NCBI GenBank assembly: GCA_027482985.1
Contig: JAIXVO010000155.1
Coordinates: 1 to 25,725, forward strand
Origin: Cyanobacteriota bacterium
Lineage (GTDB): Bacteria > Cyanobacteriota > Cyanobacteriia > Leptolyngbyales > Leptolyngbyaceae
Direction: 5' to 3'
DNA: 25,725 nucleotides
The position numbers and the translations under genes were made by a program. Below are positions 17,742 through 18,881 of this stretch, in pieces. The number at the start of each line of letters is the position of its first letter. The first letter of the stretch is position 1. Under the pieces are notes generated by a model, which searched no databases, was not told the DNA's origin, and was given only the letters and a program-made list of their open reading frames with translations.

Positions 17742-18881
17742 TCACCGCTGCAAACTCCGGGGATCAAGCGCATCCCGCAGGCCATCGCCCAGCAGGTTGA
17801 AGGCTAACACGGTGAGGATGATCAGCAAGGCGGGTGCCCAGATGAGCCAGGGTTGTAAGACCAGAATGGAGGCGTTAGTGGCGATCGAGAGCATATTGCC
17901 CCAGGAGGGGTCGGGTTGCTGAATGCCTAGCCCGATCAAGCTGAGTACAGACTCGGCCACAATGAAATCGGGGATGGCGAGGGTGGCGGCAATAATCACA
18001 TAGGTAGCGGTTTGGGGCAGGACGTGACGCACGATGATGTAGAGCGATCGCCCCCCCATGGCTCGTGAAGCTTGAACAAATTCCCGTTCTTTGATCGACA
18101 ACACTTCGCCGCGAATCACCCGCGCCAGTCCTGCCCAGCGAATGAACGAAGTAATCAGAATAATCAGCAAAAAGCGTTGGGCACTACTCAAACCCGGTGG
18201 CAATACGGCAGCTAAGGCCACCAGCAGGTAAATACTGGGGATCGTCATCAACACTTCCACCAAGCGCATCAGGATGGTATCTGTCCAGCCGCCAAAATAG
18301 CCAGAAATGCCCCCCACCAATAGGCCTAACGGGAACGAGATGATAATCCCGACCAACCCAATGCTGAGACTAATGCGACCACCAAACACTAACCGACTAA
18401 ATTGATCCCGCGCCTGATCATCCGTCCCGATCAAGTTGAATTTACCGGGGCCAATCGTCCCAAACAGATGCAGATTGGCGGGAATGCCAGAGAATACCTC
18501 GACTTCATCAAACTTGGGATCGGTGAACGAAAATTGAGTGGGGAGGGGCAGCTTCAATTGGAACAGCCGATATTCATCACCTGAAACAAATAATCGAATC
18601 GGCGAGGGCTGGCTGAAATCCACTTGCAGTTTGCGATCGCCCGTATTCAAATCGACTGGTCCTTGAGTGGTGGGATACACGTGAGGACCGATGAACTGCC
18701 CTGATTTTTTTTTTTTTTTTTACACCTGCGCTGGTGGCAGTAACGCTCCATCCGGTTGGGAGGCGTAGGGGTCATAGGGAGCCACAAATTCCGCCGCAAT
18801 TACGATCAGATAGAAGACCAGCAAAATCACTGCCCCGATGCGAGCCAGTGCATTGGTCTTCAGCCGTTTCCACCAATTCAT
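17742..18881 (-). pseudogene. ABC transporter permease, OppC/DppC type, with in-frame stop in a homopolymer
   Basis: The full locus runs from ATG 18881 (MNWWKRLKTNALARIGAVIL, first membrane helix, AAEFVAPYDPYASQPDGALL) to TGA 17742. After PPAQV the frame meets TAA (18720-18722), then five AAA codons, then continues in the same frame with SGQFIGPHVYPTTQGPVDLN. The remaining part has the insert typical of cyanobacterial members, five membrane helices and the EAA loop EFVQASRAMGGRSLYIIVRH before VLPQ. These permeases form the membrane channel for peptide or nickel importers. The total of 380 codons fits the family length. The stop would leave only a 53-residue fragment, and the downstream part has no credible start (GTG 18680 is the Val of PHVYPTTQG). 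Either a recent pseudogene or a base-calling error. Confidence 0.8.
18705..18721. repeat. 17-bp T homopolymer inside the permease gene
   Basis: Seventeen consecutive T on the plus strand (A17 in the coding sense). With the preceding coding T it makes TAA plus five AAA codons, exactly six codons, so the downstream frame is kept. It is the only homopolymer of this length in the window. Confidence 0.95.

What the first reader, a model, noticed from the sequence alone, without database searches (positions are those of the whole stretch)
18700..18725. Frame-preserving T17 homopolymer creates an in-frame stop in an otherwise intact ABC permease
Both sides of the tract encode the same permease in the same frame: PPAQV before it and SGQFIGPHVYPTTQG after it. 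The A17 in the coding strand plus the preceding T makes TAA and five Lys codons, which keeps the frame and gives a normal family length of about 380 codons. Because the stop lies at the 5' end of the tract, slippage on the A-run cannot remove it. Relatives, as I recall them, have a Tyr-Trp-Arg-type stretch here. Sixteen bases replaced by A with no frame change looks more like a base-calling or consensus error than a slippage mutation, but a real stop with readthrough is also possible.
Basis: partly seen in the sequence, partly recalled or inferred. Interest (0 to 1): 0.7.

Follow-up and report, generated by a model that had tools for sequence, protein, structure and literature searches.

The report
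Assembly artefact in a permease gene
A run of 17 T's that appears to break a cyanobacterial transporter gene is almost certainly a sequencing or assembly error that overwrote about 16 real bases, because the same draft genome carries other such runs, those that could be compared with relatives overwrite sequence of the same length, and no other family genome searched has one.

Summary
T17 lies at 18705-18721. On the coding strand (-) it makes TAA plus five Lys codons inside an otherwise intact 379-codon OppC-type permease. The two same-genus genomes have TATTGGCGNGATCAAAAG there, exactly as long as the window's T+A17, so a 16-base span was overwritten without an indel. None of the 120 best-listed homologues has KKKK there.

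The tract is not unique. This 838-contig, 84%-complete draft has 14 A/T runs of 16 or more, all 16-19 long, and 16 of 15 or more; the 41 other genomes of the family have none of 15 or more. Six coding tracts, this one included, could be compared with a relative; in all six the run stands in place of different sequence of the same length. Seven of the 16 runs lie within 75 bp of a contig end, against 0.4 expected.

This is the signature of a data artefact: a failed or masked block of about 16 bases written as A. It is not slippage, a pseudogene or a readthrough stop. The exact step is inferred; raw reads would settle it.

The parts
18705..18721 (+). T17 run (A17 on the coding strand); read as a 16-base overwritten span (18705-18720) plus one natural base at 18721, the A of a TAY codon
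   Evidence: equal-length comparison with G001 and G002
17742..18881 (-). OppC/DppC-type ABC transporter permease, 379 codons plus stop, with one in-frame TAA at codon 54 made by the run
18723..18881 (-). N-terminal piece, 53 codons, OppC_N domain
   Evidence: PF12911, E 8.2e-14
17745..18704 (-). C-terminal piece, 320 codons, BPD_transp_1 domain
   Evidence: PF00528, E 1.2e-30

Best explanation
The run is a sequencing or assembly artefact. A block of about 16 consecutive bases in one or few reads was unreadable (no-call or failed cycles) and was written as A, T on the opposite strand, in a thinly covered part of a fragmented draft genome. It overwrote the codons for a YWRDQK-type stretch without changing the length, so a false TAA plus five Lys codons appears in an intact OppC-type permease gene. 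Shown, by comparison with related species: overwriting at equal length, recurrence at many places in this draft, absence from the relatives searched. Inferred: low coverage, and the exact step (base caller, N-to-A conversion or packed-word error).
For: (1) The draft has 14 A/T runs of 16 or more, none longer than 19, and one search shows only 5 runs of 12-15 (12, 13, 13, 15, 15; lengths): a narrow peak, not a decaying tail. (2) 0 of 41 other family genomes have a run of 15 or more, two of the same genus among them; 0 of 28 relatives, 11 of them outside the family, have one of 16 or more. (3) In 6 of 6 coding tracts with a relative that could be compared, the run stands in place of non-homopolymer sequence of the same length: C50, C473, C288, C25 and C457, C356. 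(4) At C50, C288 and C457 the overwritten part can be read as exactly 16 bases, any excess being a base that a relative also has (my reading). (5) 7 of the 16 runs of 15 or more lie within 75 bp of a contig end; 0.39 expected for random places in those contigs. (6) 0 of the 120 listed homologues carry KKKK here.
Against: No raw reads or coverage were available. Two runs are T15 (C142, C811), so if they are of the same kind the block is not strictly 16. Three tracts with noncoding or poor flanks (C282, C471, C736) did not align clearly, and C471 shows a 3-base gap. C442, C505, C588, C675 and C783 had no match in the two same-genus genomes. At C473 and C288 only 10 and 6 bases lie beyond the run, so equality of length there rests on short anchors, and the alignments were made with a raised gap penalty. 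C356 was compared with one relative only (64% identical). Beyond the closest homologues the permease is one residue shorter here in 105 of 118 matched proteins, so equal length holds against the nearest relatives, not the whole family. No second assembly of the same species was found: the nearest protein, P0001, differs at 12 residues outside the tract.
Confidence: 0.96

Rival explanations
1. A real in-genome tract: the permease is a recent pseudogene, or its stop is read through or bypassed.
For: The flanking frame is intact and the rest of the protein is conserved, as it would be if the break were young.
Against: I know of no mutation that overwrites 16 bases with one letter at constant length (general knowledge). 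Here it would have had to happen many times in one genome and in none of 41 other family genomes. Slippage would change the length.
Confidence: 0.03
2. A natural slippage-prone, phase-variable A/T tract that switches the permease on and off.
For: Long mononucleotide runs can be phase-variable in bacteria (general knowledge).
Against: The TAA lies at the 5' end of the A-run, so gain or loss of A leaves the stop in place. No run of 15 or more occurs in the relatives searched, and the tract equals in length the same-genus sequence it replaces.
Confidence: 0.01

Closest known systems
Illumina no-call or failed-cycle artefacts carried into an assembly (PMC3163567; passages seen)
   Same: A local block of missing or wrong calls with correct flanks and unchanged length; [quoted passage not shown]
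   Different: The passages do not describe A16 blocks in assemblies. That the block became A is inferred; that some assemblers store N as A is recalled, from no call. That this draft was made from Illumina reads is also not known.
OppC/DppC-type ABC transporter permease (PF12911 + PF00528)
   Same: Both domains and the family length are present.
   Different: The TAA and five Lys codons; the rest differs from the nearest homologues by ordinary substitutions.

Membership tests
Sequencing/assembly artefact | Equal-length replacement relative to homologues | tested here: met
   6 of 6 comparable coding tracts; 3 noncoding or poorly aligned ones inconclusive; the rest without a usable relative
Sequencing/assembly artefact | Recurs at unrelated loci of the same assembly and not in relatives | tested here: met
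   16 runs of 15 or more here, 0 in 41 other family genomes
Sequencing/assembly artefact | Reads disagree with the consensus, or coverage is very thin | not testable with these tools
   No reads or coverage held
OppC-type ABC permease | OppC_N and BPD_transp_1 domains | tested here: met
OppC-type ABC permease | Uninterrupted reading frame | tested here: not met
   One TAA at codon 54 in the sequence as held; judged false
Slippage (phase-variable) tract | Change of tract length switches the gene | tested here: not met
   The stop stays at the 5' end of the A-run whatever its length; the length equals that of the same-genus relatives

The most novel reading that the evidence does not exclude
A real, lineage-specific process overwrites blocks of about 16 bases with poly-A/T at constant length across this genome, breaking genes including this permease.
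Probability: 0.01. Interest if true: 0.85.

Novelty: not a real feature. Interest (0 to 1): 0.06.

Why it matters
It matters only as quality control. This draft carries 16 A/T runs of 15 or more, at least six of which stand inside genes and give false poly-Lys or poly-Phe, here with a false stop. Gene calls that overlap them should be masked. Counting A/T runs of 15 or more against relatives is a quick check for this error class.

Tried and rejected
Slippage was rejected because the length equals that of the same-genus relatives and the stop lies at the 5' edge. A conserved readthrough or poly-Lys feature was rejected because 0 of the 120 listed homologues have KKKK in this region and 0 have KKKKK anywhere. 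A packed-word error aligned to the contig start was considered: by hand, the offset of the C50 block is divisible by 16, but those of C25, C282 and C288 are not. A strict minimum of 16 was dropped because two runs are 15 long. The pattern needs a base before the run, so it misses runs that begin at a contig end (it missed C505); runs of 12-14 at such places would be uncounted. Three literature searches listed 5, 6 and 0 papers; I saw the listings and opened passages of one (PMC3163567), and none of what I saw describes this exact artefact. C811 against G001 and G002 matched only beyond the tract. For C356, 3 of 17 relatives had a homologue, and one of the three (L155) gave a motif match across the tract; L156 and L157 did not match the motif and were not looked at further. 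C142 was not compared. One search was a translation in the wrong frame and was not used; only found the longer runs again.

Full report
Observation. The window is the whole of contig C50 (25,725 bases) of a draft genome of 5.23 Mb in 838 contigs, 84% complete. T17 is at 18705-18721. On the - strand, 18881-17742 encodes a 379-codon permease with a single internal stop: LLPPAQV-TAA-(AAA)5-SGQFIGPHVYP. The two pieces match OppC_N and BPD_transp_1. What the finding says about the sequence itself is correct.

What relatives have there. I looked at this stretch in 20 of the 30 loci (L022-L041); 17 matched the search motif (the window's own and 16 relatives), and L028, L040 and L041 did not. None of the 16 has a stop or a run of Lys like that of the window; L039 has three Lys in a row just before FIGPH. 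The two same-genus genomes read GTT-TAT-TGG-CGN-GAT-CAA-AAG-TCG/TCA-GGG. The window has GTG-TAA-AAA-AAA-AAA-AAA-AAA-TCA-GGG: the same 18 bases in length. After the shared TA, all 16 bases are A in the window; 10 of them differ from G001 and 11 from G002. The eight best homologues are all 379 aa and have YW[RQN][DEN]Q[KT] in the place of *KKKKK; 0 of the 120 listed proteins (of 7970 found) have KKKK in the region, and the pair is YW in 111, HW in 5, AW in 1 and DW in 1 of the 118 that the regex matched. Most homologues farther away are one residue shorter here (105 of 118 matched by a second regex), so equal length is a statement about the nearest relatives.

The rest of the genome. A scan for A/T runs of 16 or more found 14 in this draft: lengths 16 (5), 17 (5), 18 (2) and 19 (2). 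One search shows five runs of 12-15: 12, 13, 13, 15 and 15; runs of 12-14 that begin at a contig end would be missed by that pattern. For 15 or more, 42 genomes of the family, this one included, were searched: 16 runs here and none in the other 41. For 16 or more, 29 genomes were searched and only this one had any. I would expect natural tracts to fall off with length and to occur now and then in relatives.

Same-length replacement elsewhere. Pieces around the other 13 runs of 16 or more were searched in the two same-genus genomes; 7 of the 13 found a match. Aligned (MAFFT with a raised gap penalty), the coding tracts read: C473, T19 against TTTTTCTGCTCGAGAAATT in G001; C288, T16 against TTTTTTCATTCGGGCA in G001 and CTTCTTCATGCGGGCA in G002; C25, T16 against TTTATTGCAGCCAGGG in both; C457, A18 against AATGTCAAAAAGTCGAAG in G002. 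Read as protein (for this genome; the relatives translated by hand) the anchors agree on both sides: C25 MTTL-FFFFF-HLN against MTTL-YCSQG-HLN; C457 DPYN-FFFFF-L against DPYN-FDFLT-L; C473 KKSE-KKKKK-NQ against KKSE-FLEQK-NQ; C288 AQI-KKKKK-RI against AQI-ARMKK-RI. At C473 and C288 only 10 and 6 bases lie beyond the run. For C356 one more distant relative has CGT-TTCTACGGCGAAGAG-TAT where the draft has CGT-(TTT)5-TAT. That makes 6 of 6 comparable coding tracts, this one included. C282, C471 and C736 have noncoding or poorly alignable flanks and are uninformative (C471 shows a 3-base gap). C442, C505, C588, C675 and C783 had no match. C811 matched only beyond its tract. C142 was not compared.

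Position in contigs. Of the 16 runs of 15 or more, 7 lie within 75 bp of a contig end; 0.39 would be expected for random places in those contigs. Contig ends are where coverage is usually thinnest (general knowledge), which fits a consensus resting on one or few faulty reads.

Explanation. Equal-length overwriting with one letter, of nearly constant extent, at unrelated loci of one draft and in none of the relatives searched, is best explained as a data artefact. A likely course is a stretch of failed cycles or no-calls in a read, written as A when sequence is called or packed, then seen as T when the contig lies on the other strand. Passages of PMC3163567 ([quoted passage not shown] The conversion to A, and that the draft comes from such reads at all, are inferred. 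The permease gene is most likely intact in the organism.

Verdict. The feature is not biological.

Noticed in passing
L014, - strand, 9 and 11 codons past the run at 2454-2471 (contig C457): The gene that holds this tract (recalled as a DUF1016-type nuclease, from no call) has two more in-frame stops shortly after the run: either further read errors next to the block, or a decayed gene.
   Followed up: no
L148, L149, L150, L151, L152 (contigs C174, C266, C381, C555, C778): Five G/C runs of 14-24 bases, all within about 60 bases of a contig end. Relatives were not searched for such runs. They may be another sequencing artefact or the cause of the contig breaks.
   Followed up: partly
window 18729-18731 (codon 51 of the permease): Ala here is Thr in 117 and Ser in 2 of 120 homologues, one not matched by the regex. 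A single odd residue two codons before the tract could be real or a low-quality base.
   Followed up: partly
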